From contig CAIYLW010000020.1 in the NCBI GenBank assembly GCA_903927185.1, forward strand, positions 1 to 64,000: a stretch of 64,000 nt of DNA, written 5' to 3'. Made by a program: the position numbers and the translations under genes. The stretch comes from an uncultured Bacteroidota bacterium (GTDB lineage: Bacteria > Bacteroidota > Bacteroidia > Chitinophagales > Chitinophagaceae). The notes under the pieces are model-generated. The model was not told the DNA's origin, made no database searches, and was given only the letters and a program-made list of their open reading frames with translations. Positions 15,762-37,330 of the stretch are shown piece after piece. Positions within the stretch are counted from its first letter, which is position 1. Each line of letters opens with the position of its first letter.

Positions 15762-18083
15762 GTGAATCTAATAGTACGATATTTTTTTTATTCTATCTTC
15801 AGCTTTACGCTTATTGCTTTTCAACAAGTGAATGGGCAAAGCTCGGCTTGTAATAAACTGCTATACCAAAAAGATACATTAATATGCCCAGGTGTATCAG
15901 TAACACTTAATTTAACTCCAGCGCCGCTTCCTGATTCTGTTTTGCCAGGTGTTTGGAAATTACTGATTGCGAAAAATGCCATCGACTCTGCCTTATTTAA
16001 TATTAGACCTTTTGGTTACGATAGAACAAATCAATATTTATACAGTATCATACATCAACGGATCATTAGGTATGATTTAAAAAACAATGCTGTTACTGCT
16101 ATCAACGCCTCAAATTGGCCAGGAGATTTTACTGAGTTTACTTTTGACTATACCAATAACCGTTTATTATATTGGAGAGGTGGACGAGATAGTGTTTATG
16201 CAGTTTCCGCTGCTGGTGGTAGTTGGCAATTAATAACCAATGGAATTATTGATCGTGAATCTTATGGTTCTTCTTCTTATTGGAATCCAACAACTCAACA
16301 ACCTGGGTTCTACGGAGGATTTGGATCTAACCAAATGAAGAGCTGGATTTATGAAGACAGTAATAGTGGATGGGTTTCAAAAAAATCAAACCCAACCATT
16401 GATTCCATTCCCCCTAAAGGTGGTAATCTAGTTGCTTCTGATTCATCTGGTACTAAACTTTATTTATTTGCAGGACAGGGTAGTTATAGTGGCAATGAAT
16501 TAGATGGAACTTGCACATTAGGAAGTCCATGGGCAAGTCAGGCAGGCATGTTTTGTTGGTTAAAAGATTTATGGGTACTCGATTTATCTAATTATAGTTT
16601 CAAAAATATTTTACCAGTAAATAATACAACAATAAAATATCAAGGAGCAGTAGGATATGATTATGATAAATCTCGTTTCTTTTTATTTGGAGGATTTCAA
16701 CCTACTGGAAATTATGCGCAGAATCAATTATTATCTAACACGAATAAAACTTTTCGTTTCCGTACTGCTATTGATACTGGTTTTGTAGAATTTATGGGAC
16801 AAGGCGATCAACCACCTGCTGCTGTTGGTACTTATTTGAATGGACTTGCTTACTATGATCCAATTGGTAAAAGAATGTTATGGGCAAGGACTGATGGAAT
16901 TTGGGCTTATTATCCAGATTCAACTAGTATTCCTCTTTCACAATTATCATATACGTGGTCTACTGGGGATACAACTTCTTCTGTCGTAGTAAATCCAATC
17001 ATAACTACACCATATAAAATCACACGTACAAGCGGAGGGTTTGTTTGTATAGATAGTATTTTAATTACTGTACAACCTATGCAAACAGCCTTATTACAAA
17101 CTGTAAATGTTTGTGGGGATACGGCAAAATTAGATGCTGGGATAGGATTTGATTCTTATTTATGGAGCACCGGAGATACAGTTCAGAATATTGCTGTAAC
17201 AAAAAATGCTGTTTATACAGTTTCTGTAACAAAAGGACTTTGTTCTTCAAAAGATAGTAGTACCATTCAAATTGCTACTCCAGTATTGGATTTTACAGTG
17301 ATGGCCCAAAAGGATTCTGTTTGTTATGGTGAATCAGATACTTTAAATGTGGTATCTCCACAACCTGGTGTTATTTACTCATGGTACTTGCCTGGTAGTT
17401 CTATTAAAATCAATTCAGGAATTTATTATGGACTTAGTAGTGTTACAAAAAATGTTAGTTATGTAATTAACGGAAACAGTGTACCCGCAGTTTGTACTTT
17501 AAAAAGTTCTACTGTTCAAATTGTAGTACGTCCTAAAATTTCAAAACCATTGCTTAAAATAGATTCAATAGGGGCAAATTCTATTATAGTTAGCTGGGAT
17601 GCAATTCAAAATGCTACAGCTTATTTAATCAGTTTAGATAATGGTGTGTCTTTTCAATATCCAACTCAAGGCATATTAGCGCTAAAAGAGATTGTAAATG
17701 GAATTGCTTCAGGACAATCCCAAAAAATCATTCTAAAAGCACTTGGTAACGTAAATTGTCAAACAAGCGATACGAGTCAGATTATCGCAACAACTATCAA
17801 TCCATTTGGTAATGGAATTTATATTCCAAATGCATTTACTCCAAATGCAGATGGAAGTAATGATTTCTTTCGTGTTTATGGCACTGCCATTAAAAGTATT
17901 CGTTTGAAAATATTCAATCAATGGGGCGAAATGGTATTTAGCACTATTGATATGATGATTGGTTGGGATGGAAATTATAAAGGAAATAAATCCCCTGCTA
18001 GTGTCTATACTTACACATTGGAAGCAAAGATGATTGATGGAACAGATATTATTAAAACAGGAACATTTACTTTAATCAGATAA
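15762..18083 (+). CDS. Secreted propeller-like protein with type B T9SS/gliding C-terminal domain (CHU_C)
   Basis: A 773-residue protein. The start is a GTG that puts a signal peptide (ending near VNGQS, residue 26) at the N-terminus; no in-frame ATG is better placed. Residues about 50-420 have repeated aromatic/Gly strands resembling a kelch-type beta-propeller (for example LYLFAGQGSYSG, RFFLFGGFQPTG). Ig-like repeats follow, with SYTWSTGDTTSS and SYLWSTGDTVQN. The last about 85 residues (IPNAFTPNADGSNDFF, FNQWGEMVF, GWDGNYKG) are a type B sorting domain, so secretion and surface attachment by T9SS are expected. Its probable PorP/SprF partner begins 23 bases downstream. Confidence 0.9.
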   Translation: MNLIVRYFFYSIFSFTLIAFQQVNGQSSACNKLLYQKDTLICPGVSVTLNLTPAPLPDSVLPGVWKLLIAKNAIDSALFNIRPFGYDRTNQYLYSIIHQRIIRYDLKNNAVTAINASNWPGDFTEFTFDYTNNRLLYWRGGRDSVYAVSAAGGSWQLITNGIIDRESYGSSSYWNPTTQQPGFYGGFGSNQMKSWIYEDSNSGWVSKKSNPTIDSIPPKGGNLVASDSSGTKLYLFAGQGSYSGNELDGTCTLGSPWASQAGMFCWLKDLWVLDLSNYSFKNILPVNNTTIKYQGAVGYDYDKSRFFLFGGFQPTGNYAQNQLLSNTNKTFRFRTAIDTGFVEFMGQGDQPPAAVGTYLNGLAYYDPIGKRMLWARTDGIWAYYPDSTSIPLSQLSYTWSTGDTTSSVVVNPIITTPYKITRTSGGFVCIDSILITVQPMQTALLQTVNVCGDTAKLDAGIGFDSYLWSTGDTVQNIAVTKNAVYTVSVTKGLCSSKDSSTIQIATPVLDFTVMAQKDSVCYGESDTLNVVSPQPGVIYSWYLPGSSIKINSGIYYGLSSVTKNVSYVINGNSVPAVCTLKSSTVQIVVRPKISKPLLKIDSIGANSIIVSWDAIQNATAYLISLDNGVSFQYPTQGILALKEIVNGIASGQSQKIILKALGNVNCQTSDTSQIIATTINPFGNGIYIPNAFTPNADGSNDFFRVYGTAIKSIRLKIFNQWGEMVFSTIDMMIGWDGNYKGNKSPASVYTYTLEAKMIDGTDIIKTGTFTLIR

Positions 18084-18106
18084 ATAAAAGAGATCAACAA
18101 TAATAA

Positions 18107-19096
18107 ATGCGCAAATACTTTTTATTTATATTAGTTCAACTTTTCATGATGCATGGACGCGTCAATGCTCAGGTTGATGCGCATTTTACTCAATTCTTTG
18201 CATATCCTCAATGGTTAAATCCAGCTTTAACTGGAGCGATGAATGGTAGTTATAGAGTATCTGGAAATTATCGAAAACAGTGGCCTAGTTTATCATCCCC
18301 ACTTATATCTCAAGGAATTTCAGCAGATATGTCTCTTCCAAGAAACTTTGGATTAGGTGTTACTTTATTTAATCAAAAAACAGAAGAGGGAGGATATCAT
18401 TATACAAGTGGATATCTGTCACTTTCTTATCAAGTACATTTAACACAATATCAAATTTTATCAAGTGGATTTCAGATTGGTTTTTTAAATAGGAGGATAG
18501 ACCCAGGAAATTTTCAATTTGGAAATCAGTTCAATCCAGTAATTGGATTTGATCCAACAATTCCATCCAATGAAACTTTTGCGTATCCTTCTGCCACATC
18601 TTTAGATGGAAGTTTAGGATTATTATATTTTGATGGAGACCCTAATCATATACTTAATCCATTTATAGGGTTTAGCGTATATCATCCAACAGAACCACAA
18701 AATCATTTTATCTCTAGTGCTAATGTTAATAAAATTCCAATTCGATATTCAATTCATGGGGGATTTAGAATTAAAGTATATGATCTTATTGATTTAATGC
18801 CCAATGTTATTTACTTAAATCAGGGAGGTAGTAACGAATTGATTACAGGACTTTCTTTTGATTTGAAAATTGACCCATATAAAGATTTGATTTTTGGAGG
18901 AAACTATCGAATCAATGATGCTATTTCGCCTAATGTAGGAATTCATATGAATGGATTAACAGTTGGGTTTAGTTATGATTTTAATACTTCGCAAATAAAA
19001 ACTGCGTCAACAAATAATAGAGGATATGAACTGTCGATTAGTTTTGTAAATCCGAAAAAGACACCAGTCACAAAATTTGTATGCCCAAGACTCTGA
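18107..19096 (+). CDS. PorP/SprF-family outer-membrane protein (copy 1)
   Basis: A 329-residue beta-barrel of the T9SS PorP/SprF family, with a signal peptide ending at VNAQ. The family opening DAHFTQFFAYPQWLNPALTG and the regular amphipathic strands with HPTEP and FGGNYRINDAISP are diagnostic. Relatives of SprF are needed for surface display of particular type B CTD substrates, and this one directly follows such a substrate, so a dedicated pair is inferred. The C-terminal codons overlap the next gene by 16 bases. Confidence 0.92.
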   Translation: MRKYFLFILVQLFMMHGRVNAQVDAHFTQFFAYPQWLNPALTGAMNGSYRVSGNYRKQWPSLSSPLISQGISADMSLPRNFGLGVTLFNQKTEEGGYHYTSGYLSLSYQVHLTQYQILSSGFQIGFLNRRIDPGNFQFGNQFNPVIGFDPTIPSNETFAYPSATSLDGSLGLLYFDGDPNHILNPFIGFSVYHPTEPQNHFISSANVNKIPIRYSIHGGFRIKVYDLIDLMPNVIYLNQGGSNELITGLSFDLKIDPYKDLIFGGNYRINDAISPNVGIHMNGLTVGFSYDFNTSQIKTASTNNRGYELSISFVNPKKTPVTKFVCPRL

Positions 19097-21771
19097 TTTT
19101 TAAATATATCATGATAACACATACTGCATTGATAATGTCAATGGTAGGTTCGGGATATATATGGGCGCAATCTGCTCAGAAAATTGAGAAAAGGGCCGAT
19201 GAAAGTTTTAAGAACAAAAATTATTATAATGCGGCTATTCTTTATTCAACCATTCTATATGAAACACCCATTTCAGAAAATTCTGAATCGCTAGTTTATC
19301 CTGTTCAGTCATATTCCAAAAGCCATATACATAAAATTAAAGAATCGAATATTAATAGAGTAACCTATAAATTGGCTGAATCATATAGGTTGTACGAGCA
19401 TTATCAAGATGCTGCAGTACAATATCAACAATACATTGCTTCTAAAGATGGTCAATTTCCTTTGGCAGAATTATGGTATGGATATTGTTTGCTTGCAAAT
19501 AATGAACCCTTAAAAGCAGAGTTGGCATTTAATACTTTTTTAAAAAAATACCGTAACAAGGATAGTTATGTTGAAAAGGCTCTTCAGGGAATAGCATCTT
19601 GTAGTATGGTTTTATCAAATACATCTCAAAAGCCATTAGCTACAATCTCAAAATTAAAAAGCACAGGGTCGGAAGATGGTTCCAATTTTGCTTTAGAAAA
19701 ATTAAATGAAAAGGAGTATTGGTTTAGTAGTTCAAGAAATGAAATAAATAAAAGACAGCAAAAAATATATCCATTACGTCTTTATAAAGGCGATTTTATA
19801 AAGGGATCCATCAATAAAGCATTTGATCAGATTGCAGATGATGTAAACATGGCTGCGAATTCATTTTCAAGTGATGGAAATATAGTTTTTCTAACTGCCT
19901 GGAAGGAAGATATAAAATCAGGTGTTCAACCTTTTGCTATTTATTATATGAGAAGACCAGATGTAAATTCAAAGTGGTCTAACCCTGAAATGCTACCTGC
20001 TCCCATTAATGTGAAAGGGTATCAATCAAAGCAACCTTTTATAACAAATGATGGTAAACACCTATTGTTTTCTTCTAATCAACCAGGAGGCTTGGGCAAA
20101 TATGATTTATGGATAGTTTCTATGGATGGTGTGAAACCTGTTGGGAATGCACTGAATTTAGGCTCAAATATTAATACACAAGGGAATGAGGTGACTCCAT
20201 TTTTTTATACTACAGAATCTAAACTAACATTTAGTACTGATGGAAGATTGGGTATGGGTGGCTTAGATATTTATGAAACTACTGGTTCTGTTTCTGATAA
20301 TCAATGGACCAATCCAATTATTCATCTAGGAGCTCCATATAATTCAGTGAAAGATGATGAATATTTTAAGATGTATGGCACAGATACTGGATACTTAAGT
20401 TCAGATAGGTTCTCTACTTGTTGTTTAGAAATTTTCAGAACCGTGAAAATTAAAACTATTGATACTTTAAAAATCGTATCAAGTAAAATCAACACACTTA
20501 ACAAAGATACTTCTAAATTAGTATTTGCTCAAACTCAACCCGTAACAACTCTGCCAGTAATTACAAAGATTAAAGATGATGAAAATGTTGAAAAACATTT
20601 TATGGACTCTATTAATGCAATCACATTTATAAGAAGAAATGTCTACTATAATTTTGCAAGTGCTAAAGTTCGACAGGAAGACTTTTCTCAATTAGATGAG
20701 ATTATATCGGTTCTTGAAAAAAATCCAGATTTAAATATACTCATTGCTTCATTTACTGATTGTAAAGGTTCAATGGAAGCAAATATTAGATTATCAAGAA
20801 AGAGATCTGAATCTGTTAGATTTTATTTGCTCAAAAAAGGAATTTCTACTTCAAGGATTAATATCGACTTCTTTGGGAAAGAGCATTTTATAATGCAATG
20901 TAAAGAAGATACTACGTATAATAGTTCTAAACAATTATCAAATAGAAGGTCAGATCTGATCATTACAAAAGGCTCAAAACCTAAGTGGATTCCATCTGGC
21001 AGGGAGTTGGATATAACTAAAATTAAAGCTGATTCCAATTATCATTCACCGGAATTTTATGTGATTGCTAAAAAATTGAAATTGGATATTGATACAAGCT
21101 TTATTCAGCCAGATACATTAAAGGCAGAAAAGCTGATTGCTCTTAAATTATCAAATATTCAACAAGAGGGTATTAAAAAACCTCTTGCAAATGAACCGGA
21201 AAAGAAAGCATTTGGATATATAAAAAATATAGAAACTATTGGATCCAGAGTTAAGAAAAGTGATATTCAAGTGGAAAGGATTGCTTCTTTATTAAAGACC
21301 GATAATGAGAAAAAAATCATTGAGCCGTCAACTAATAAAATACAAATGATTGAAATGCTTGATATGACTCCTAGGCTTAAAGAGTCGGATGTTATTAACG
21401 AAATGACCAAACGGATTCCCAAAAAACCGCTGCAGATTTATTCAACCTCTGACTTTGTAAGAATTGATTTATATGATAATGGGGTATTTGATTATGATAC
21501 AGTATCTGTAATATTTAATAAACATATTCAAGTGTATAAAGAATTACTACAGGTAAATAAACCGATTAGCTTTTTTATTAAACTTGATAATGATCAAAGT
21601 AAAAATGAAATGATATTTTTTGCGGAAAATCTTGGATTAACACCCCCTAATTCTGCATTAATGGTAATCACAGATGCTGATAATAAAAGGACTGAAGTTA
21701 GTGTATCAAGTGATTTAAATAGTAATGTTGTTATTTATTTCATTAAACTTAATAAGGGGCAAAAGAAATAA
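19081..21771 (+). CDS. TPR / PD40 / OmpA-family protein with a C-terminal extension
   Basis: An 896-residue envelope protein. A signal peptide ends near IWAQS; either the ATG at 19081 or the one at 19111 could be the start. TPR-like helices cover about residues 35-180. PD40/WD40-like strands (SSSRNEIN, LLFSSNQPGGLGKYDLWIV, LTFSTDGRLGMGGLDIYET) cover 200-440. An OmpA peptidoglycan-binding domain begins near residue 522 (VYYNFASAKVR, ASFTDCKG, LSRKRSESV). The architecture resembles the PorE-type T9SS accessory proteins. About 265 further residues follow, ending in a beta-rich module (VRIDLYDNGVFDYDTVSV, FFAENLGLTPPNSALMVITD). It probably anchors the preceding PorP/CTD pair to the cell wall. Confidence 0.85.
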   Translation: MPKTLIFKYIMITHTALIMSMVGSGYIWAQSAQKIEKRADESFKNKNYYNAAILYSTILYETPISENSESLVYPVQSYSKSHIHKIKESNINRVTYKLAESYRLYEHYQDAAVQYQQYIASKDGQFPLAELWYGYCLLANNEPLKAELAFNTFLKKYRNKDSYVEKALQGIASCSMVLSNTSQKPLATISKLKSTGSEDGSNFALEKLNEKEYWFSSSRNEINKRQQKIYPLRLYKGDFIKGSINKAFDQIADDVNMAANSFSSDGNIVFLTAWKEDIKSGVQPFAIYYMRRPDVNSKWSNPEMLPAPINVKGYQSKQPFITNDGKHLLFSSNQPGGLGKYDLWIVSMDGVKPVGNALNLGSNINTQGNEVTPFFYTTESKLTFSTDGRLGMGGLDIYETTGSVSDNQWTNPIIHLGAPYNSVKDDEYFKMYGTDTGYLSSDRFSTCCLEIFRTVKIKTIDTLKIVSSKINTLNKDTSKLVFAQTQPVTTLPVITKIKDDENVEKHFMDSINAITFIRRNVYYNFASAKVRQEDFSQLDEIISVLEKNPDLNILIASFTDCKGSMEANIRLSRKRSESVRFYLLKKGISTSRINIDFFGKEHFIMQCKEDTTYNSSKQLSNRRSDLIITKGSKPKWIPSGRELDITKIKADSNYHSPEFYVIAKKLKLDIDTSFIQPDTLKAEKLIALKLSNIQQEGIKKPLANEPEKKAFGYIKNIETIGSRVKKSDIQVERIASLLKTDNEKKIIEPSTNKIQMIEMLDMTPRLKESDVINEMTKRIPKKPLQIYSTSDFVRIDLYDNGVFDYDTVSVIFNKHIQVYKELLQVNKPISFFIKLDNDQSKNEMIFFAENLGLTPPNSALMVITDADNKRTEVSVSSDLNSNVVIYFIKLNKGQKK

Positions 21772-21777
21772 GAAGAA

Positions 21778-22806
21778 TTAAAATCTAGTACATCTTACCT
21801 TATCTATAGAAGTATTTCTGATCTTTAAGAAATCAGTATAAGACAATGTTAATTCCAAACCGCCTCTCCAATTAGAAGCAACATTAAGTTTAGAGATATT
21901 TATATCATAGCTAACTCCAATGTTAAAGTGACTTAGACCAATGTTAACTGCAGGAATAATTGCATCACCCCATCTTAAAAAACTACCGAGATAAAAAATA
22001 TCAGGTTCTGCATTATTATATTCAACAATACTAACTCCATAGAGCAAACCTGCTAAAAACTGTCTATTTCCCCCTTGGGCAAAATAATCGGCAAATGCTT
22101 TTATATGATTTTTGTAACCAAAATGCGAATGTATTCCGGTATTAATTGAATATTTTGGAGGGATTGCATCTGGTACTGATCCAGTTGTTGATTTGATTAC
22201 TGGATTGGTTACATGCGACATTCCCCCTGCAATGTAAAAATTAGTTTTCGAATTTATATTCGTACTAAAGCATAATCCACTTGATAAATCCCAATAGGTA
22301 TAACCAGTGTTTGCAATTGGTTGTGAACTTGGATTAGAAGGATTGTAGGCACTATTTCTATACTGGTCGCCAAAAATTAATTTTGAGGCATCGAAATGAC
22401 TGGAAACAATTCCAAACATAAATGCTCCAGATAAATATGTATCTCTATTTCCACTTAATGATTTATGAAAATTTATTGCTGGTTTGAACTGAGTTCTTTT
22501 AAGACTGATATCTCCTGCTGCATCAAGACTCATTTGAGAAGCTAGAGTTAAGTAATCGTTTTTTTCGTTTATTGGTATTTTATATTCTACACTTAATGAA
22601 GTAGTCCTAAATGGAATTGTAATACTTGACCATTGATCACGGTAGGCTGTTGATACACGTAAATCACCTGTAAAAACACCTGCTAATGCTGGATTTCGAA
22701 GAATAGGTTGTTCATAGAATTGAGAGAAAGTAAAATCTTGTGCAAGGCCTTTTTGGTAAAAAAAGCCTAAGAACATGATTATATAAAATAAATACTTTTT
22801 CATCAT
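21778..22806 (-). CDS. PorP/SprF-family outer-membrane protein (copy 2)
   Basis: A paralogue of copy 1, about 342 residues, with a signal peptide ending at KGLAQ. The opening DFTFSQFYEQPILRNPALAG is the family hallmark. The start is one of two adjacent ATG codons (22806 or 22803), so a TTG one codon upstream is not needed. The stop codon of the giant repeat protein immediately precedes it on the same strand, so the two are one transcript and probably a substrate/anchor pair. It converges on the OmpA-family gene with a 6-base gap. Confidence 0.92.
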   Translation of the reverse strand: MMKKYLFYIIMFLGFFYQKGLAQDFTFSQFYEQPILRNPALAGVFTGDLRVSTAYRDQWSSITIPFRTTSLSVEYKIPINEKNDYLTLASQMSLDAAGDISLKRTQFKPAINFHKSLSGNRDTYLSGAFMFGIVSSHFDASKLIFGDQYRNSAYNPSNPSSQPIANTGYTYWDLSSGLCFSTNINSKTNFYIAGGMSHVTNPVIKSTTGSVPDAIPPKYSINTGIHSHFGYKNHIKAFADYFAQGGNRQFLAGLLYGVSIVEYNNAEPDIFYLGSFLRWGDAIIPAVNIGLSHFNIGVSYDINISKLNVASNWRGGLELTLSYTDFLKIRNTSIDKVRCTRF

Positions 22807-22809
22807 CAA

Positions 22810-25800
22810 TTATTTTAATACTGCTACATTTCCCTTAAAAGTGGCAGGTATTCCTTTTTCACAGAGTACTTCACATATATATACAAATATGTCTTGTGCA
22901 GCAGGTTTGCCTCTTACTTTGCCATCCCAACCATTTGAAGGATCCCCAGGTAAGAAATTGGTTTTCTCAAAAACTAGTTCGCCCCAACGACTATAAATTC
23001 TAAAACTTTTTATTAGCTTAATCCCGGTACCCTGAACAAATAATATATCGTTAATGCCATCACCATCTGGTGAAAATGCATTTGGTATAAATATTTCTGA
23101 GTTAGGACAAAATGTTTTAATCGAAATAGTATCAGTTATATTACAGCCATATATATTGGTAGCTGAGCATATGATATCGGCATCATTTGATACTTTAGCA
23201 ATGGTAGTTTGACAATTATCACACGTGAAGATAGCGTTCCCAGTCCATTTCCAATTTCTTATACTTTCTAGTTTATTACTGTTGGGAACTAGCATGAATT
23301 GAACTCCTGCTTGAACTGCAGTATCTGCACCAATTGAGATTAATGTTGGTTCTCCAACCACCAAATTGATTTTAGCAGTATCAGAAAAACAATAATGATT
23401 ATCTCTTCCGATTACTGTATATGATGTAGAATAATTTGGAGTAGCAACTGGGTTACTACTATTATAATTACTTAATCCGGTTTCGGGAAGCCAAGTATAA
23501 TTTTCAGCGCCAGTAATAGTTAAGTTTAATGAAGAACCTAAACAAATCGTATCAATAAGTGATCCCTGAATTTTAAAAGGTTGAACTACTTTAATACTTG
23601 TATTTGCAATCTGACTACAACCATATTGATTATACCCAATCACACTATAATTGCTGTTGGTACTTGGTATTAAATTAATTGATGCACATGAATTACAAAC
23701 TATATTATTTTGTTGATCCATCCATATATAGTTCAATGCACCTGTTGCTATTAAGTTCAACGTATCTCCTTTGCAAACATAATTGTCAGATGGAATTGAC
23801 ACTGTTGGTAAAGGATGAATTGTTAATGATTTGTATGTTGAATCCAAACAGTTGTTAATAGTAGACACTAATAATTTTATCGTATACTTTCCTTCACTAT
23901 AATATTGTACAGTTACAATGCTATCTTTTGAACTAATTCCATTTCCCAGATTCCATAATATCAGGAATAAACTATCCTTTGAATTTACGTTAGTTGTTAG
24001 TTGCATTAATTGACTTTTGCATGCTTCGTTTACAGCATTGATATTTACTTTTGGAACCGAAAATATTTTAACTTGAAAATTTGCATTTGTTGTTGTAACA
24101 CAACCAGTATTACTTTGAATTGTAAGGCTAATTTTATTTTGACCAGCTTGTGTGTATGTTTTACTGTATTTTTTTGAAATGGTGGTGTCGGATGGTGCAC
24201 TTGACCATTTCCAATTTGCAATTCCAAACAATGATTTAGAAGCGTCTATGAAATCATAAGTAGTATTTCCGCAGTTATTAATTGCATTTAAGGCAAAATC
24301 AGCTTTTAAAGGGTCGACTTTAATAGTAACACTGCTCGTTGAAGTGGCGCAAATTCCATTATCTATCGTCCATTTGAATACATATGTTCCAGGTACTAGT
24401 CCATTTACAACTGTATTAGCATTTGTTGCGTCATTGAAATAGATAACAGAAGGCCCATTAGTCAAATTCCAAATACCCTGACCAATAATAGGCGAATTGC
24501 CTTGCAATTGAATTGATGTATTTAAGTTACAAATAATTTGATCGTTACCAGCATTAGCGATAGTTACTGGTTGAACTACATTAATATTTACCGAGTTACT
24601 ATATTGTAACGTGCATAATCCATTTTGAACAAGTGCTCTGTAAAGTGAGCTGGTATTTAATTGTTGATAAGATAATACAGTAGCTGTATCTAAAATAATT
24701 GTCCAGCTATTGCCATTATCATTTGATGATTCCCAATGTACAATCGATCCGGCATTTCCGAAAAGTTGGATGCTGCCACTATTTGAATTTAAACAAACTG
24801 TTGCATTTCCTTTAATAATTCCAGCTACAGTAGGTGAGGTAACATTTATTATTGCAATATTAGAATAATCTGCTGAGCAAACTCCACTTTGAATAAGTAC
24901 TCTGTAAATCGTTGTATTTGTAAGATTTGAAAAATTATAACTACTGCTTGAATTTTTGATAACGTTCCAGCTTTTGCCATTGTCTGTTGATTGCTCCCAA
25001 TGAATTATATAACCAGTAAAGCCGGATAAATTAATGGAACCGCTGTTCATATTCGCACAAACTGAGGTATCAGAACTTGATAATATTCCTGGGATTGTGA
25101 TTGGATTTACTGTAATATTTACTTCATTAGTATAATTTATATTACAAGGTCCATTTTGAACAAGGGCTCTAAATTTTGTATTATTTTTCAAATTAGTATA
25201 GAGATAACTATCATTGTTTGAAGTTATCATAGTCCAATTCATTCCATTATCAATTGATGATTCCCAAGCAACTATATTTCCAAGATATCCAGAGACTAAT
25301 AATTTTCCACTATTTATATCCGCACAAACAAAATTATCAGCTATCAGATTTCCTGCAATGGTATTTGGATAGATAATTATTTGTACTGTATCTCTTGATT
25401 CAGTACATAAAGTATTGGTAATGGTCCAAATAAATTGATAGGTACCAGTACTAAAACCTGAAACAATTGTATTTGGATCAGATAGATTATTAAAACTAAC
25501 CGAAGATGGATTGCTTGCTGAGGAAGACCATCTGCCAATTCCAGAGGTTGGTGCATTCGCAGCAATGGTTGTATAACTCTGACTGCATATCTTTTGATCT
25601 ATTCCGGCATTTGAAATTGTAACTGGTTGGAGTACCTGAATATTTATGATATTGGAATAAACAGAAGGACAAATATTATTTTGAACAAGTGCCCTGTATG
25701 AGGTAGACAAATTTAGATTTGTGGTTTGATAAGTATTGTTTATATTATGAATTGTATCCCAACTAATTCCATTGTTTATAGATGATTCCCATTGCAGAAT

Positions 25801-28800
25801 TGTATTGTTGTATCCAGTAAGCTTTAATAAATTGTTATTTGAATTTGCACAAACAACTGCATCTTCCGCAAGTTGGCCTGCAATACTTGAGGCATAAACA
25901 GAAACTTGAACGGTATCTTTTGATTCAGTACATAATACATTCGAAATGGTCCATACAAATTGATAAGTTCCTGTTGTTAAACCATAAACAGAACTACTGG
26001 GGTCTGTTGGATTTGTAAAACTCACTGCTGTTGGATTACCTGGTAAAACTGTCCAGAATCCAGTTCCATTTATTGGGGTATTGCCCGATAAAGTAGTGGA
26101 AGATTGACTACATATTTTTTGATCAATACCGGCATTTGATACTGTTACATTTCGTAAAACTGTTATGGTAACTACATTGCTATATAAGGAAGGACATGAA
26201 CCGTTTTTAACTTCTGCTTTGAATTGTGTAGTGGTATTTAGACTATTATATGTAATACTATCTTTATTCGCACTATTTGTAACTGGGAACCAGTTTAGGC
26301 CATTATCAGTTGAATAGTTTCCCGCCAATACCGAACCAGTGTATCCATTTAATCTTAATGTACCGGCATTATTATTAACACAAACTGTATTAGACGAAAC
26401 CATAGTTCCAGGTACTGTAGGAGCATCAATTGTAATATTTACAGTATCAACAGAATTGTTACAACTTCCATTTGATATCGTCCAGATAAATTGATAGGAT
26501 CCAATGGTTAGTCCGTTTACTATGGCATTGGGATCTTTGATATTACTAAATGTAGGGATACTTGGATTGCCAGATGGATAGCTCCAGGTTCCAGTGCCTG
26601 ATATTGGTCTATTTGCAAATAATTGAATAGAGCTTGTATTGCATATACTACTATCTTTTCCTGCATCAGCATTCGTTACTGCATCCAAAATGGTTATAGT
26701 AGCTGCAATTCCTGAATAAAGAGATAAGCCAACTCCATTTTTAACCAGGGCACGATAATAAGTAGTACTAGTAAGATTTTGATATTGTAAGGTATCTTGA
26801 TTTGTACCCACAGTTCTTGAAATAATATGCCAATTAGAATTACTCGCAGTGGAATCTTCCCATTGGAGAATACTTCCGAAATATCCTTTTACTGAAATAA
26901 AGCCACTATTAATTCCAGCACATGCAATAGTATCTAGACCAACAAAGCCGGGGTTGGTAGGGGGTTGAACAGTAACAACCATAATACTTTCGGAAGGCGG
27001 ACATATTCCGTTACTAATTGTCCATTTTAAATGGTAAATACCGTCTGATGGCGGAATAATTGGATTAGAAGTAGTGTCACCTAATTGATAAGTTAGTTTT
27101 CTTACTGTTGCTGTAGGATCTGAAGTATCAGTGAAGACTAAATTAGAAGGCCCATAAGTAGGAATTATCGTCCATACTCCCACACCTGAAATTGGAATAT
27201 TCCCTTCTAATTTGTAACTTGAAAATCCATTGATTAATGTGGTGTCAGGTCCCGCATTAGCAATTGTTGTGGAAGGCGAAACAGTTATTCTTACTAGATT
27301 AGAATATAATGAAGAACATGCACCATTTTTAACGAAAACCCTGTAATAAGTTGAACTAGTTAGATTAGAATAATTTTGTGAATTGCTTGTATTTGAAATG
27401 ATATTCCAGTTGGTGCCATTGACGGAAGATTCCCATTGTAATATATTACTAACATATCCATTTAAAGAAAGGGTACCGTTATTGGAGTTCGCGCAAACGG
27501 TAGCATCAGCACTTAATGTGCCGGGTTCAGTTTTTGGTGATACAATAATTTGTACAGTATCTTTTGAATTGAAACATACGCCATTATCAACTGTCCAAAT
27601 AAACTGATACGTTCCATTAATTAAACCATTCACAGTTGTATTTGGATCAGATAGGTTAGTAAATGTAACAACAGAAGGATTTCCAATGATAGAACTCCAG
27701 GTTCCAGTTCCTGAGGTTGGCATTGCTGCCTTTAGTGTAGCATCAGTTGCATTACAAATTGTTTGATCCAATCCTGCATTGGAAATTGTTACTGGTAGCA
27801 ATACAGTAACTACCGCGTTGTTAGAATAAAGTGGTGCACAAGAACCACTTTGAACTGCAGCTCTAAAAATTGTAGTAGTTGATAAATTATTGTAGGTTAT
27901 ACTATTTGATTGATTGGAAATAATGGTCCAGCTATTTCCGTTGTCAATAGAAGATTTCCAATTCAAAATTGTTCCAATATAACCTGTTAAAATAATCTGA
28001 CCAGTATTTGAGTTTTTACAAACGGTTGTTGATCCGCTCAAAGATCCCGCTATGGTTTGTGCATTAATTTTTATTTCTACCGTATCAGTTGATATAAAAC
28101 AAGAAGCATTAGACACATTCCAAACGAACTGATAGTTGCCGGTGATAAGTCCATTTACAATGGTATTCGGATCTCCAGGATTTATAATCGTTGCGATAGA
28201 AGGATTTGTTGGTAATGCAGTCCAGATTCCAGTTCCTATTGTTGGGCTATTTGCCGAAAGTGTACTTACATTATTGTTACATAAGATCTGGTCTGTTCCT
28301 GCATAGGCAGCTGTTACAGGTTGTAATACGGTAATAAAAGTTGTGTTGCTATATAAGGCTGGACAATTACCACTTTGAACAATTGCTCTATAGGAAGTGG
28401 TACTGCTTAAATTATTAAAGGATAATTGATTGGTAGTATTCGAAATGCTAGTCCAATTTCCTCCATTGTTATTCGAAGATTCCCAATTAAGTATAGTTCC
28501 CGAAAATCCTGAAAGCAATAAAGTACCTACATTATTATTTGCACAAACGGTTGCATCTTCAGCAATTGAACCGGTTATGGTAACCGGGCTTACTGTAATA
28601 GTAACAAAATTACTATTCACTGCATTGCATAGACCATTTTGTAAAACTGCTCTATATAAAGTTGTGTGGGTTAAATTGCTATATGAATAAGTATTACTAG
28701 TATTATTAATCATTAACCAGTTAGCACCTGCATCCGATGATGATTCCCAGTGTAGTATGCTTCCAATAAATCCATTTAAATTAAGTGTGCCGCTGTTGCT

Positions 28801-31719
28801 ATTGATACATACAGTTGAATCTGCAGAAACTTTTCCAGCTTGAGATAAAGCATTAACAATAATGGTAACAGAAGCAGAATAAGCAAAACTACAATTACCG
28901 CTTTGCACTAAAGCTCTATAAAGGGTTGTTTGAGTTAGATTATTGTAAGTATAAAAATTTGATTTATTATTTATGGAAGACCATGTGCTGCCTCCATCTG
29001 TTGAATATTCCCATTCAATAATATTTCCTGTATATCCAGATAGCGTTAAAGTATTTGAATTTGAACCTTCGCAAACTATAGCATCACTAGAAATTATTCC
29101 CCCCACAGATTCAGGCGTTATTATTAATTGCACAGTATCCCTAGAAATATTACAAGTTCCATTTGTTATAGACCATATTAATTGATAGGTACCAAAAGTT
29201 AATCCACTTATGGTGCTAAATGGAGATGTAGCAGTTCCGAAATTAACGGAAGATGGACCTGATAAAATATCCCATTTCCCAATACCAATTCCTGGAATAT
29301 TTGCTGATAAAATACTGCTCGTTACATTGCAAAGAACTTGATCAGGTCCTGCATTTGCTTGACTAGAATTAGCATAGATTAAAACATCTGTGGAATCTAT
29401 TCCATTACAACCTACACCTGTTAATGCGGTTATATAATATCGAGCTTTTGAATTGGCATTGTAAATATTATTCAGCGTATCTATAATTAAATTATTAGGG
29501 CTAGTAATTGTACTAGTTGAATTCCCATTTATAGCCCCATTGATGATAGAGGAAGTCCATGTAAAAGTGGATCCATTTATGCTGCTATTAAATTGGATAT
29601 TACTCGCACTTCCACTACAAATTGATGCATTGTTATTTATAATTGAAAGACTAGGTTTTGCTTTTATAATTACAGTATAATTAAATGGATTCCCAATGCA
29701 AGTGGCATTCGAGGGCGTAAATGCAAAAGGAGTAATGTTATAAATTACTGTTGCATCCAACACATTTGATCCATTAACCAGGGAATCATTAATATTTCCA
29801 GTGCCAGAGGCTGAATTTCCATATACTACTCCTGTTGCAATGGAAGAAGACCATGAATAGAAACTACCAGAGATAGAACTAATAGGATTGAAGTTGATAA
29901 TGTTGTTGGAACAAATGGTCTGATTGGAATTTGCAGCCATATTTGGAGGATAAATCCTTAAAATCATAGAATCTTTACCATATGCTGTCCCACAACTACC
30001 TGTTGAATTAATACTAGAGCTACCTGTAAAATATATTTTTATAGATCCCGCTAGTTTATCAGCTGCGCTTGGAGTATAATTTGTAAAAAGTGAATTGTTA
30101 TTTGAAAAATTTCCTGTACCAGAACTTGTCCATTGGTATGAATTTGTTACTGCTGATACTGCAGCCAATAATGAAATAGGGGATGTGTTACTACAAACTG
30201 TTGTATCGTGTGATCCAAGTATCGTATCAGCTGATAAAGTGTTTTTGTAGATCTTTTGTTGAGCAGAACAGGTAACAGCATTGGAGGTAAATTGAACGTT
30301 TACTGTATATGCATTTCCATTTTGCAATTGCACAGAAGGGTATTGGCTATTTGATGTGGAAGACCCTTGGTAGCTTAATGGGCCTCCCGTAATATTCCAT
30401 AAATATGTATTGCCTGGATTATTATTACTGTAGGTTACTCCATAATAATTATCAGTTGTGTTAAAATTTGTAATACCATTATTACACTCAATAATGTCGG
30501 AATGCAGACTTACTTTATTGGCAAAAAGATTGGTGGACACTGAAGTTGTACATCCATTTAAAGTCACATTGTATTGTATTGTACTGCTTCCTGAACTAAT
30601 AAAATTAACTAGCCCATTATTTAAATCTACTGTGGCAATAGAAGAATTACTCGAACTCCATACACCTCCTGTGGTGCTGTTTGTTAGATTGATAGTGCTG
30701 CCTACACATCCTCCAGTTGGCCCCGCAATAGATGCTACTAGTGGGGGTAATTTTACATTTACATTTGTGGTATAAGATCCTGTACAACCATTACTATCTG
30801 TTACTGAAACTAAATAATTCCCGCTAGCATTGCTGCTGATATTAGGTATGGTTGGATTGATAGCATTAGAGCTAAAGCCATTTGGGCCAACCCATGCATA
30901 TTGATAAGGTTGAACACCACCAATTGCAACAGAATTAAAGTTTAATGTATTACCAAGGCATATAGAACTTGCGTTTGTTGCACTAATAGAGGGTGAAGGT
31001 AAAACGGTGATGGTATCTGTAATTAAATCGATACAACCATTATTGGAAGTAACCTGAAGTGATACAGGATATTTTCCTGCAGTTGAAAAAGTATGAGACA
31101 CATTACTTCCTGTTAGGCTATTTCCATCACCAAAATTCCAAACTTGTGAATTAATACTACCTCCAAATCCTATCGTTGCATTACTATTAAAAGAAAAATT
31201 ATTCCCACTTAAACATTGATTCGATGGTATGGGATATGTGGCATTGGGTTGAGGAAAAACTGTAATTGTTTTGCTGAGGCTATCCATACAGCCCAGATCA
31301 GATGTAACAATTAGTTTAACTTGGTAGTTTCCTGGAGAAAAATAACTATGATTGACAGATGCTCCAGTAGCAGTTTTACCATCCCCGAAATCCCAAAATT
31401 GGTTGGTAATTGCTCCAGAACTGATGGTTGATAAGCTATTGAAATCAAAGCTATTTCCAGATAAACATTGGCTGCTTCCAGTAATCATACCTAAGGAAAA
31501 GGAAACTGTTTTATTTTTTTCTGACTTGGTGGGAGTTTTTTTACTTTCTGGATTCCCGTCAGAGCTTAAATTATTATTTGGACTATTTAAAACACTTTTT
31601 GGATTTTCTGCAGCGAACTCGATTTTTGGAAAAAGTATTGCCAGACAAAACAATACAGCAGTTGTTTTTGACAATAATTTAATTTGGAGTAATCTAGTAT
31701 GAAAAGTAAAAATGATCAC
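22810..31719 (-). CDS. Giant PKD/Ig-like repeat surface protein with type B T9SS C-terminal domain
   Basis: 2969 residues. The start is GTG at 31719, giving a signal peptide ending near EFAAE (residue 37). Two PKD domains (FWDFGDGKTATG, VWNFGDGNSLTG) occupy about residues 75-235. Varied Ig-like domains then run to about 780. Residues 781-2473 are an array of 19 units of two kinds. PKD-like and Ig-like domains follow, and the last about 90 residues are a CHU_C sorting domain (IPNAFSPDGDGINDILF, YSRWGELVF, GWDGKVRGK). Expected to be exported by T9SS and displayed as a long adhesin-like fibre. SprB-like gliding adhesins are the nearest functional analogy, but binding specificity cannot be inferred. 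The PorP/SprF copy 2 gene follows directly. Confidence 0.92.
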   Translation of the reverse strand: MIIFTFHTRLLQIKLLSKTTAVLFCLAILFPKIEFAAENPKSVLNSPNNNLSSDGNPESKKTPTKSEKNKTVSFSLGMITGSSQCLSGNSFDFNSLSTISSGAITNQFWDFGDGKTATGASVNHSYFSPGNYQVKLIVTSDLGCMDSLSKTITVFPQPNATYPIPSNQCLSGNNFSFNSNATIGFGGSINSQVWNFGDGNSLTGSNVSHTFSTAGKYPVSLQVTSNNGCIDLITDTITVLPSPSISATNASSICLGNTLNFNSVAIGGVQPYQYAWVGPNGFSSNAINPTIPNISSNASGNYLVSVTDSNGCTGSYTTNVNVKLPPLVASIAGPTGGCVGSTINLTNSTTGGVWSSSNSSIATVDLNNGLVNFISSGSSTIQYNVTLNGCTTSVSTNLFANKVSLHSDIIECNNGITNFNTTDNYYGVTYSNNNPGNTYLWNITGGPLSYQGSSTSNSQYPSVQLQNGNAYTVNVQFTSNAVTCSAQQKIYKNTLSADTILGSHDTTVCSNTSPISLLAAVSAVTNSYQWTSSGTGNFSNNNSLFTNYTPSAADKLAGSIKIYFTGSSSINSTGSCGTAYGKDSMILRIYPPNMAANSNQTICSNNIINFNPISSISGSFYSWSSSIATGVVYGNSASGTGNINDSLVNGSNVLDATVIYNITPFAFTPSNATCIGNPFNYTVIIKAKPSLSIINNNASICSGSASNIQFNSSINGSTFTWTSSIINGAINGNSTSTITSPNNLIIDTLNNIYNANSKARYYITALTGVGCNGIDSTDVLIYANSSQANAGPDQVLCNVTSSILSANIPGIGIGKWDILSGPSSVNFGTATSPFSTISGLTFGTYQLIWSITNGTCNISRDTVQLIITPESVGGIISSDAIVCEGSNSNTLTLSGYTGNIIEWEYSTDGGSTWSSINNKSNFYTYNNLTQTTLYRALVQSGNCSFAYSASVTIIVNALSQAGKVSADSTVCINSNSGTLNLNGFIGSILHWESSSDAGANWLMINNTSNTYSYSNLTHTTLYRAVLQNGLCNAVNSNFVTITVSPVTITGSIAEDATVCANNNVGTLLLSGFSGTILNWESSNNNGGNWTSISNTTNQLSFNNLSSTTSYRAIVQSGNCPALYSNTTFITVLQPVTAAYAGTDQILCNNNVSTLSANSPTIGTGIWTALPTNPSIATIINPGDPNTIVNGLITGNYQFVWNVSNASCFISTDTVEIKINAQTIAGSLSGSTTVCKNSNTGQIILTGYIGTILNWKSSIDNGNSWTIISNQSNSITYNNLSTTTIFRAAVQSGSCAPLYSNNAVVTVLLPVTISNAGLDQTICNATDATLKAAMPTSGTGTWSSIIGNPSVVTFTNLSDPNTTVNGLINGTYQFIWTVDNGVCFNSKDTVQIIVSPKTEPGTLSADATVCANSNNGTLSLNGYVSNILQWESSVNGTNWNIISNTSNSQNYSNLTSSTYYRVFVKNGACSSLYSNLVRITVSPSTTIANAGPDTTLINGFSSYKLEGNIPISGVGVWTIIPTYGPSNLVFTDTSDPTATVRKLTYQLGDTTSNPIIPPSDGIYHLKWTISNGICPPSESIMVVTVQPPTNPGFVGLDTIACAGINSGFISVKGYFGSILQWEDSTASNSNWHIISRTVGTNQDTLQYQNLTSTTYYRALVKNGVGLSLYSGIAATITILDAVTNADAGKDSSICNTSSIQLFANRPISGTGTWSYPSGNPSIPTFSNIKDPNAIVNGLTIGSYQFIWTISNGSCNNSVDTVNITIDAPTVPGTMVSSNTVCVNNNAGTLRLNGYTGSVLAGNYSTDNGLNWFPVTNSANKDSITYNSLNTTTQFKAEVKNGSCPSLYSNVVTITVLRNVTVSNAGIDQKICSQSSTTLSGNTPINGTGFWTVLPGNPTAVSFTNPTDPSSSVYGLTTGTYQFVWTISNVLCTESKDTVQVSVYASSIAGQLAEDAVVCANSNNNLLKLTGYNNTILQWESSINNGISWDTIHNINNTYQTTNLNLSTSYRALVQNNICPSVYSNIINIQVLQPVTISNAGIDQKICSQSYTTIAANAPTSGIGRWSSSASNPSSVSFNNLSDPNTIVSGFSTGTYQFIWTITNTLCTESRDTVQIIIYPNTIAGNLIADNFVCADINSGKLLVSGYLGNIVAWESSIDNGMNWTMITSNNDSYLYTNLKNNTKFRALVQNGPCNINYTNEVNITVNPITIPGILSSSDTSVCANMNSGSINLSGFTGYIIHWEQSTDNGKSWNVIKNSSSSYNFSNLTNTTIYRVLIQSGVCSADYSNIAIINVTSPTVAGIIKGNATVCLNSNSGSIQLFGNAGSIVHWESSNDNGNSWTIILDTATVLSYQQLNTSSLYRALVQNGLCTLQYSNSVNINVVQPVTIANAGNDQIICNLNTSIQLQGNSPIIGQGIWNLTNGPSVIYFNDATNANTVVNGLVPGTYVFKWTIDNGICATSTSSVTIKVDPLKADFALNAINNCGNTTYDFIDASKSLFGIANWKWSSAPSDTTISKKYSKTYTQAGQNKISLTIQSNTGCVTTTNANFQVKIFSVPKVNINAVNEACKSQLMQLTTNVNSKDSLFLILWNLGNGISSKDSIVTVQYYSEGKYTIKLLVSTINNCLDSTYKSLTIHPLPTVSIPSDNYVCKGDTLNLIATGALNYIWMDQQNNIVCNSCASINLIPSTNSNYSVIGYNQYGCSQIANTSIKVVQPFKIQGSLIDTICLGSSLNLTITGAENYTWLPETGLSNYNSSNPVATPNYSTSYTVIGRDNHYCFSDTAKINLVVGEPTLISIGADTAVQAGVQFMLVPNSNKLESIRNWKWTGNAIFTCDNCQTTIAKVSNDADIICSATNIYGCNITDTISIKTFCPNSEIFIPNAFSPDGDGINDILFVQGTGIKLIKSFRIYSRWGELVFEKTNFLPGDPSNGWDGKVRGKPAAQDIFVYICEVLCEKGIPATFKGNVAVLK
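24300..29375 (-). repeat. 19-unit A/B Ig-PKD-like repeat array inside the giant protein
   Basis: Eight B units (about 85-100 residues; NAGxDQxxC ... GxGxW ... DPNTxVxGL ... GTYQFxWTI ... NGxC) and eleven A units (about 85-90 residues; VCxNSNxG ... GxILxWESS ... NLTxTTxYRALVQNGxC ... YSN). Read N- to C-terminal they run B AAA B A B A B A B A B A B AAA B. Each unit carries two conserved Cys except B4 and A6. A7 lacks the usual Trp-Glu (VLAGNYS). Units are diverged rather than identical, so this is not recent expansion. Confidence 0.85.
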
Positions 31720-37129: not shown

Positions 37130-37330
37130 AAATAATACTTAGATTACATTTTATATTTTGTAGCAAAGTAGTCATTTAATTATACTAATTTTAATAGAAT
37201 CTGAAGCCCAAGTTTGTAATCCCATTATTTTTTGAATTAACCTTTCCAATTATTACTAACTATTTTTGAAAAGGTGTAAACAAAAAAGGTTTTAATTTTT
37301 TATTGTTTGTATTTCAATAATGGGATAATT

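What the first reader, a model, noticed from the sequence alone, without database searches (positions are those of the whole stretch)
24300..29375. Palindromic order of 19 Ig/PKD-like units in the giant surface protein
Sorting the repeat region into two unit types gives B AAA B A B A B A B A B A B AAA B: eight B and eleven A units, identical read from either end, with unit A6 at the centre. Tandem arrays in T9SS adhesins normally show simple alternation or blocks. A mirrored order suggests an ancestral A-B alternation with equal AAA expansions on both sides, or selection on fibre architecture. The units are diverged, so the order is old.
Basis: partly seen in the sequence, partly recalled or inferred. 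Interest (0 to 1): 0.62.

Follow-up and report, generated by a model that had tools for sequence, protein, structure and literature searches.

The report
Conserved mirrored stalk of surface adhesin
A giant surface protein of a Bacteroidota bacterium has two kinds of Ig-like domain in the mirrored order B-AAA-B-A-B-...-B-AAA-B; close relatives keep the two AAA end pieces and change only the number of AB pairs between them, so the mirror follows from fixed ends plus an extendable middle.

Summary
In detail: 19 units, BAAABABABABABABAAAB (8 B, 11 A; window 24304-29358, minus strand). It is conserved. Nine gapless arrays of this form, the window's included, have 19, 23, 29 or 43 units and all are exact two-letter palindromes; within this clade every complete N-cap (16 of 16) and C-cap (22 of 22) has three A. 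The form is B-AAA-(BA)k-B-AAA-B with k = 5, 7, 10 or 17, mirrored for any k.

At finer resolution the mirror breaks: A units form subtypes a (before A) and b (before B), giving B-aa-(bB)k+1-aa-bB, which has a direction. Core dimers are near-identical in some relatives (up to 0.98 DNA identity); cap units are not. A block duplication of the AAA cap is rejected by AU tests, though not by SH tests.

The protein carries a T9SS type B domain and lies beside a PorP/SprF gene: most likely a length-variable stalk adhesin anchored at its C-terminus. B resembles domains of the Aureispira grappling hook protein, A a domain of RemZ. The capped order was not found in 12 loci of other genera; simple mirrored runs were. 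New variant of a known kind; selection for the mirror is not shown.

The parts
22810..31719 (-). giant surface protein gene, 2969 aa, GTG start as listed
   Evidence: PKD_4, PKD_5, K319L-like_PKD, CHU_C
31258..31479 (-). N-terminal PKD domain (best PKD_4 stretch, protein 81-154)
29653..29922 (-). PKD-like domain (best PKD_5 stretch, protein 600-689) upstream of the array
29107..29358 (-). B1 (N-cap)
28843..29106 (-). A1 (N-cap, subtype a)
28579..28842 (-). A2 (N-cap, subtype a)
28312..28578 (-). A3 (N-cap, subtype b)
28054..28311 (-). B2
27787..28053 (-). A4 (core, subtype b)
27529..27786 (-). B3
27268..27528 (-). A5 (core, subtype b)
26956..27267 (-). B4 (104 aa, with an insertion)
26674..26955 (-). 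A6 (central unit, subtype b)
26416..26673 (-). B5
26143..26415 (-). A7 (core, subtype b)
25885..26142 (-). B6
25618..25884 (-). A8 (core, subtype b)
25360..25617 (-). B7
25096..25359 (-). A9 (C-cap, subtype a)
24829..25095 (-). A10 (C-cap, subtype a)
24562..24828 (-). A11 (C-cap, subtype b; its position forms its own clade across 10 genomes)
24304..24561 (-). B8 (C-cap)
   Evidence: best K319L-like_PKD match at protein 2390-2468
22855..23091 (-). CHU_C / T9SS type B sorting domain (protein 2877-2955)
   Evidence: Pfam 42.8 bits, cut-off 27; TIGR04131 32.5 bits, below its cut-off of 35
21778..22809 (-). PorP/SprF-family outer membrane protein gene, next gene downstream on the same strand
   Evidence: PF11751 and TIGR03519; homologue found in 40 of 51 loci tested

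Best explanation
The array is the stalk of a giant T9SS-secreted adhesin, held to the outer membrane at its C-terminus by the PorP/SprF protein encoded next to it. The stalk has two fixed end pieces and a variable middle. Each end piece is B-a-a-b-B; the middle is a run of b-B dimers that is lengthened, shortened and homogenised by recombination between similar dimers. Because only whole dimers change, and each end carries three A, the two-letter order B-AAA-(BA)k-B-AAA-B is mirrored for every length. The mirror is a consequence of this grammar, not a signal in itself. Shown: the formula, its conservation with k = 5, 7, 10 and 17, the a/b subtypes, higher mean similarity of cap units by position, and near-identical core dimers in relatives. 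Inferred: secretion by T9SS, PorP/SprF anchoring, a stalk that sets the reach of the N-terminal domains, and recombination as the agent of change.
For: Nine gapless arrays of this form (window included) with 19, 19, 19, 23, 29, 29, 29, 43 and 43 units, all mirrored; a tenth (G112) is interrupted by a run of N. Within the clade, complete N-caps have three A in 16 of 16 and complete C-caps in 22 of 22 (my counts). Mean identity of a cap position to the same position in other species (0.54-0.60) exceeds that to every other class. FastTree splits N1,N2,C1,C2 from N3,core,C3 with support 0.886. Leave-one-clade-out HMMs predict the next neighbour for 152 of 154 A units, and for 146 of 154 with the last 14 residues cut. 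G080: two core dimers 0.98 alike in DNA against 0.85-0.86 to their G115 counterparts, k = 10 in both, so homogenised after the split; G039 (k = 7) has near-duplicate dimers at 0.87 and 0.81. In the mirrored clade no neighbouring like pair exceeds 0.67 aa identity (81 pairs), while 67 of 314 next-but-one like pairs exceed 0.7. CHU_C and adjacent PorP/SprF; SprF binds the type B protein SprB (PMC9143113, abstract and passages).
Against: In the window itself no dimers are recent duplicates (core DNA identity at most 0.61), so recombination is seen only in relatives. Position-specificity of cap units is a matter of means: the single best match in another genome falls in the same class in only 36-57 of 90 comparisons per cap position (often a core unit wins), and of the six A cap positions only C3 is one clade in 10 of 10 genomes. 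TIGR04131 scores below its cut-off. No ligand, adhesion or localisation was tested. Repeat number was compared between species, not strains. The a/b rule is confounded with position, because in this clade a units are exactly the first two of each cap; it fails in the A-run protein G084 (14 of 14 A-before-A units score as b) and in 5 of 41 such units of mirrored-clade fragments (my count). One contig-edge array (G101) reads BAABAAAB. Many relatives break at contig ends inside the array, so repeats may be collapsed.
Confidence: 0.75

Rival explanations
1. The mirrored order is itself selected: the fibre needs equal end pieces, for example because stalks pair antiparallel, so both ends must present the same AAA surface.
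For: Both caps keep three A in every complete case seen in the clade, while k varies from 5 to 17.
Against: The caps differ in sequence: N- and C-cap units are 0.40-0.48 alike between species, C3 forms its own clade, and with three letters (a, b, B) the order is not mirrored. The conservation comes from one clade, so it is one event.
Confidence: 0.1
2. One AAAB block was duplicated to the other end (ancestral B-AAAB-AAAB), and AB dimers then grew between the copies.
For: B(AAAB)(AB)k(AAAB) is the simplest parse; N1,N2,C1,C2 fall together (0.886); SH tests do not reject the block trees (p = 0.07 and 0.11).
Against: AU tests reject N1C1|N2C2 (p = 0.018) and the three-unit version (p = 0.048); direct-order identities are not raised. 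Later exchange within each cap could have erased the signal.
Confidence: 0.15
3. The mirror arose by chance once and is kept by descent without function.
For: 3 of 21 orders of the same run lengths are mirrored; two-letter mirrors also appear in simple arrays of relatives (B-A15-B, BABABAB); other genera have other orders.
Against: It does not explain why the caps stay at three A and are not homogenised while the core between them is. It is partly compatible with the best explanation, which also makes the mirror a by-product.
Confidence: 0.25
4. Assembly artefact: repeats collapsed or joined wrongly in a metagenome contig.
For: Many relatives break at a contig end inside the array.
Against: Window units of one type are on average about 45% identical (aa), easy to assemble; other assemblies give the same 19 units (G086, G097), and single-contig genomes give the same form with other k (G010, G080).
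Confidence: 0.03

Closest known systems
SprB and other T9SS type B adhesins anchored by PorP/SprF-like proteins (Flavobacterium johnsoniae)
   Same: Giant repetitive protein with a C-terminal type B domain and an adjacent PorP/SprF-family gene (PMC9143113 abstract and passages)
   Different: SprB was not compared; gliding not tested; this array has a capped two-domain grammar
Periscope proteins (SasG, Rib, Sgo_0707; PMC8201768, passages read)
   Same: Tandem-domain stalk whose repeat number varies; near-identical repeats in some relatives
   Different: Window repeats are diverged; variation seen between species, not strains; the repeating unit is a dimer of two unlike domains between fixed caps; no N-terminal ligand domain identified
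Grappling hook protein A (GhpA) of Aureispira sp. CCB-QB1 (PDB 9flp, 9fly and others)
   Same: The B profile finds 11 stretches in GhpA (E 1.2e-119); best structural match of the B-A-B-A model is 9fly (Z 16.1, rmsd 5.2, 325 aligned)
   Different: GhpA is 5898 aa; the A profile does not find it at E up to 1; the assembly state of our protein is unknown
RemZ of F. johnsoniae (PDB 8gl8)
   Same: One A-type domain (E 5.9e-23, residues 308-392)
   Different: RemZ is a type A substrate (PMC10994853, passages read); ours carries a type B domain
Relatives with A-only or other arrays (G083, G084; loci L151-L162 of other genera)
   Same: Same A and B domain families; G083 and G084 also share the C-terminal region
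   Different: Simple A runs or unlike orders; the capped BAAAB...AAAB order is in none of the 12 loci fetched from other genera, though L152, L153, L154 and L160 are simple runs that are mirrored trivially

Membership tests
T9SS type B (CHU_C) surface protein | C-terminal CHU_C / type B sorting domain | tested here: met
   PF13585 42.8 bits over cut-off 27; TIGR04131 32.5 bits, under its cut-off of 35
T9SS type B (CHU_C) surface protein | cognate PorP/SprF gene nearby | tested here: met
   21778-22809, TIGR03519 107.4 bits over cut-off 90.55; homologue in 40 of 51 loci (one of the 40, L119, only 25% identical); of the other 11, nine lack the 3' end of the gene and two (L116, L118) hold more distant proteins (my reading of the loci)
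T9SS type B (CHU_C) surface protein | secreted through T9SS and bound at the surface | not testable with these tools
   needs experiment
Periscope protein | tandem domains with very high mutual identity | tested here: not met
   window dimers at most 0.61 DNA identity; met in some relatives (0.98 in G080)
Periscope protein | repeat number varies between strains | not tested
   only one genome per species held; it varies between species
Periscope protein | N-terminal functional (ligand) domain at the tip | tested here: inconclusive
   only PKD/Ig-like domains found N-terminally by Pfam
GhpA grappling hook | domain homology | tested here: met
   B profile, 11 stretches, E 1.2e-119; A profile finds none
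GhpA grappling hook | multi-chain hook assembly | not testable with these tools
   needs microscopy
RemZ/RemA family (type A substrate) | type A CTD | tested here: not met
   Por_Secre_tail (PF18962) is not among this protein's Pfam matches at E up to 1, and none of the 17 matches in the own genome lies in the window's contig
SprB gliding adhesin | orthology to SprB and role in gliding | not tested
   SprB was not compared

The most novel reading that the evidence does not exclude
The stalk has recombination-insulated caps: a-type units, which join A to A, mark both ends and are too diverged to recombine with the core, so stalk length can change in two-domain steps without touching the end pieces. 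Alternating two unlike folds keeps neighbouring domains dissimilar even when dimers are almost identical, which would avoid the misfolding cost proposed for identical neighbours.
Probability: 0.35. Interest if true: 0.6.

Novelty: new variant of a known kind. Interest (0 to 1): 0.45.

Why it matters
Variable-length stalks are known, as tandem arrays of highly similar domains. Here a clade of about 24 genomes (one per species) keeps one domain grammar, fixed ends and a dimer-extendable middle, over lengths from 19 to 43 domains. It makes a concrete question testable: whether the ends of a tandem array are held apart from recombination by sequence divergence, and whether alternating unlike domains permits length change without misfolding. 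It also shows how a striking symmetry can be an invariant of the way a repeat grows and not a selected feature.

Tried and rejected
Block duplication of AAA and mirror pairing of caps were tested with constrained trees (IQ-TREE fast search, one start each). AU: block pairs 0.018, block triplets 0.048, mirror of the a units 0.11, three-unit mirror 0.084, independent pairs 0.19, a-type monophyly 0.67. SH rejects none. IQ-TREE with bootstrap on all units timed out; the trees it left, without support values, were printed there but not used; FastTree was used instead. The 'singleA' column is wrong (overlapping matches not counted); k was recomputed as (units-9)/2. In one search the window rows read zero because the wrong record was picked; they were redone. 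Domain hits of 40 bits or less were dropped before the formulas; this removed one weak A-like hit near residue 265 in several relatives and none in the window.

In one search, 75 A-before-A units lay outside the training set and 52 were classed a; of the 23 misses 14 are in the A-run protein G084. Units next to neither A nor B, or at contig ends (10), were not judged. Classing units of non-mirrored relatives by cap position gave no clear caps in G084, G083 or G103, so the origin of the caps could not be read from them.

Fold searches return many unrelated Ig-like chains, as expected for Ig folds. Paper searches for mirrored or palindromic domain order and for giant Chitinophagaceae T9SS repeat proteins gave nothing on point in their listings; the library is partial. 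No paper on GhpA itself was among the 8 papers, so statements on GhpA rest on PDB titles and sequence. A general anti-misfolding rule was considered and not adopted: related A-run arrays tolerate neighbours at a mean of 0.72-0.85 identity (G083, L152, L160).

Full report
What was claimed.

The observation. The ORF at window 22810-31719 (-) codes for 2969 aa. Pfam finds four PKD_4 stretches (best 81-154), two PKD_5 stretches, four K319L-like_PKD stretches (the best on B8) and a C-terminal CHU_C domain. The A units have no Pfam family over its cut-off except a YccV-like match (36.3 bits) of which no stretch passes on its own. Hand delineation and HMM scanning agree on 19 contiguous units at 24304-29358. 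Left-out units score 66.7-127.1 bits to their own type and at most 15.1 to the other; A and B profiles hardly align. The order is exactly as reported.

Is it more than chance? On the window alone, hardly: 3 of 21 orders of the same run lengths are mirrored, 10 of 210 for free run lengths. The relatives decide. A search of 101 genomes of the genus found a match in 82; with the C-terminal region as query, 65 of 147 genus genomes match at E <= 1e-30, and 38 of these score above 480 bits (my count). I fetched 51 loci and scanned them with rebuilt A and B HMMs.

The formula in relatives. Nine arrays of this form, window included, are gapless in one ORF: window, G086 and G097 have 19 units, G039 23, G080, G115 and G120 29, G010 and G104 43. 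All nine are exact two-letter palindromes. G112 has 26 recognised units and one gap, which is a run of N in the assembly. Other genomes are cut by contig ends or frame breaks, but within this group every complete N-cap reads BAAAB (16 of 16) and every complete C-cap BAAAB (22 of 22; my counts). One fragment, G101, reads BAABAAAB from a contig edge. So the form is B-AAA-(BA)k-B-AAA-B, mirrored for any k. On a midpoint-rooted FastTree of the C-terminal region (41 sequences) 22 of these genomes form one group, whose own support value is not shown; G089 falls outside with low support (0.681), although its cap units score best as N1, N2 and C1, C2, C3; G035 lacks the C-terminal region. That makes 24 genomes. 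The rest of the genus differs: long A runs between two B (G084, G083; G137 is a fragment), BABABAB (G103), isolated B units (G041, G081, G116, G129, G059 and others) or AaAAaABB (G090). B-A15-B, B-A10-B and BABABAB are also two-letter mirrors, of a trivial kind.

Caps against core. Between species, the mean identity of each cap position to the same position elsewhere (N1 0.60, N2 0.58, N3 0.60, C1 0.58, C2 0.55, C3 0.54) exceeds that to any other class; N-cap and C-cap units are 0.40-0.48 alike, in no preferred order. Single best matches are less clean: they fall in the same class in 57, 37, 47, 48, 36 and 46 of 90 comparisons for N1, N2, N3, C1, C2 and C3, and only C3 forms one clade in 10 of 10 genomes. 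The A units split on the FastTree tree into N1,N2,C1,C2 and N3,core,C3 (support 0.886): A before A (a) against A before B (b). Leave-one-clade-out HMMs recover this for 152 of 154 units, and for 146 of 154 with the last 14 residues cut, so the difference is not only in the linker, though the two strongest columns are there. In mirrored-clade fragments outside the training set, 36 of 41 A-before-A units are classed a (my count), and 67 of 67 A-before-B units over all test sequences are classed b (64 of 67 trimmed). The rule fails in G084. With three letters the array is B-aa-(bB)k+1-aa-bB: directional, not mirrored. Because a units are exactly the first two of each cap, next neighbour and position cannot be told apart here.

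How the array changes. Core dimers are near-identical in some relatives: 0.98 DNA identity in G080 between two dimers that are only 0.85-0.86 like their G115 counterparts, with the same k = 10 in both; 0.87 and 0.81 in G039, which has two dimers more than the window. G010 and G104 keep 1:1 rank over 19 dimers. In the mirrored clade no neighbouring like pair exceeds 0.67 identity (81 pairs) but 67 of 314 next-but-one pairs exceed 0.7. Recombination of whole dimers would explain this, and such changes keep the mirror. In the window the dimers are old (at most 0.61).

Origin of the caps. AU tests on 111 cap units reject the block duplication (p = 0.018 for pairs, 0.048 for triplets), and do not reject a-type monophyly (0.67), independent pairs N1N2|C1C2 (0.19), mirror pairing of the a units (0.11) or a three-unit mirror (0.084); SH tests reject none. 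So the predicted grouping of A1-A3 with A9-A11 is not seen, and the exact route stays open.

Other genera. A cap profile matched 86 of 294 family genomes, in 41 of 101 genera. None of the 12 loci fetched from other genera has the capped order. They read, for example, BAB[386]BABABAB followed in another frame by ABAB...aA (L151), BbaABABaA (L156) or BBBBBBaA (L158); four are simple runs that are mirrored trivially (L152, L153, L154, L160). On this sample the capped grammar is confined to one clade of the genus. Record titles of the three closest relatives found name Chitinophagaceae or Bacteroidetes metagenome assemblies.

What it does. CHU_C and an adjacent PorP/SprF gene (homologue in 40 of 51 loci) mark a T9SS type B surface protein; in F. 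johnsoniae SprF binds SprB and PorP-like proteins are proposed as anchors (PMC9143113, abstract and passages). AlphaFold models of B-A-B-A (mean pLDDT 92.8, pTM 0.63) and of the N-cap (85.8, 0.52; the five models ranged from 43.9 to 85.8) are chains of beta domains; relative domain angles were not examined. The closest solved structures are segments of the Aureispira grappling hook protein (9fly, Z 16.1, rmsd 5.2, 325 aligned), in whose sequence the B profile finds 11 stretches; A matches a domain of RemZ. I conclude, as inference, that the array is a stalk that carries the N-terminal PKD/Ig domains away from the cell, with a length set by k.

Verdict. Real, conserved within a clade, and explained: the palindrome follows from two AAA end pieces plus a dimer-extendable core. 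It is a new variant of the length-variable stalk adhesins, of moderate interest; selection for mirror symmetry is not shown.

Noticed in passing
window 15762-21771 (+): A second CHU_C protein (773 aa), a PorP/SprF gene (329 aa) and an OmpA/PD40 gene (896 aa) lie convergent with the giant gene and its PorP/SprF: two type B sets side by side.
   Followed up: no
window 37307-39619 (+): RCC1-like (below that family's cut-off) plus Ig_7 protein of 770 aa, perhaps another surface protein.
   Followed up: no
L048 (G083), L152, L160: Related proteins with A-only runs whose neighbours are on average 0.72-0.85 identical, unlike the mirrored clade.
   Followed up: partly
L044 (G089), L151 (G409), L055 (G035): The orthologous or related gene is split over two or three frames; either sequencing errors or frame changes.
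   Followed up: no
window 26956-27267 (-): B4 carries an insertion (104 aa against 84-86 in the other B units), matched by longer fourth B units (103 aa) in L060 and L061.
   Followed up: no
GhpA (sequence of PDB 9flp), about 4844-5884: The grappling hook protein seems to end in a run of B-type domains (11 stretches; alignments at 4844-5806) before a weak CHU_C-like match (14 bits), possibly an anchor-side stalk of the same domain family.
   Followed up: partly
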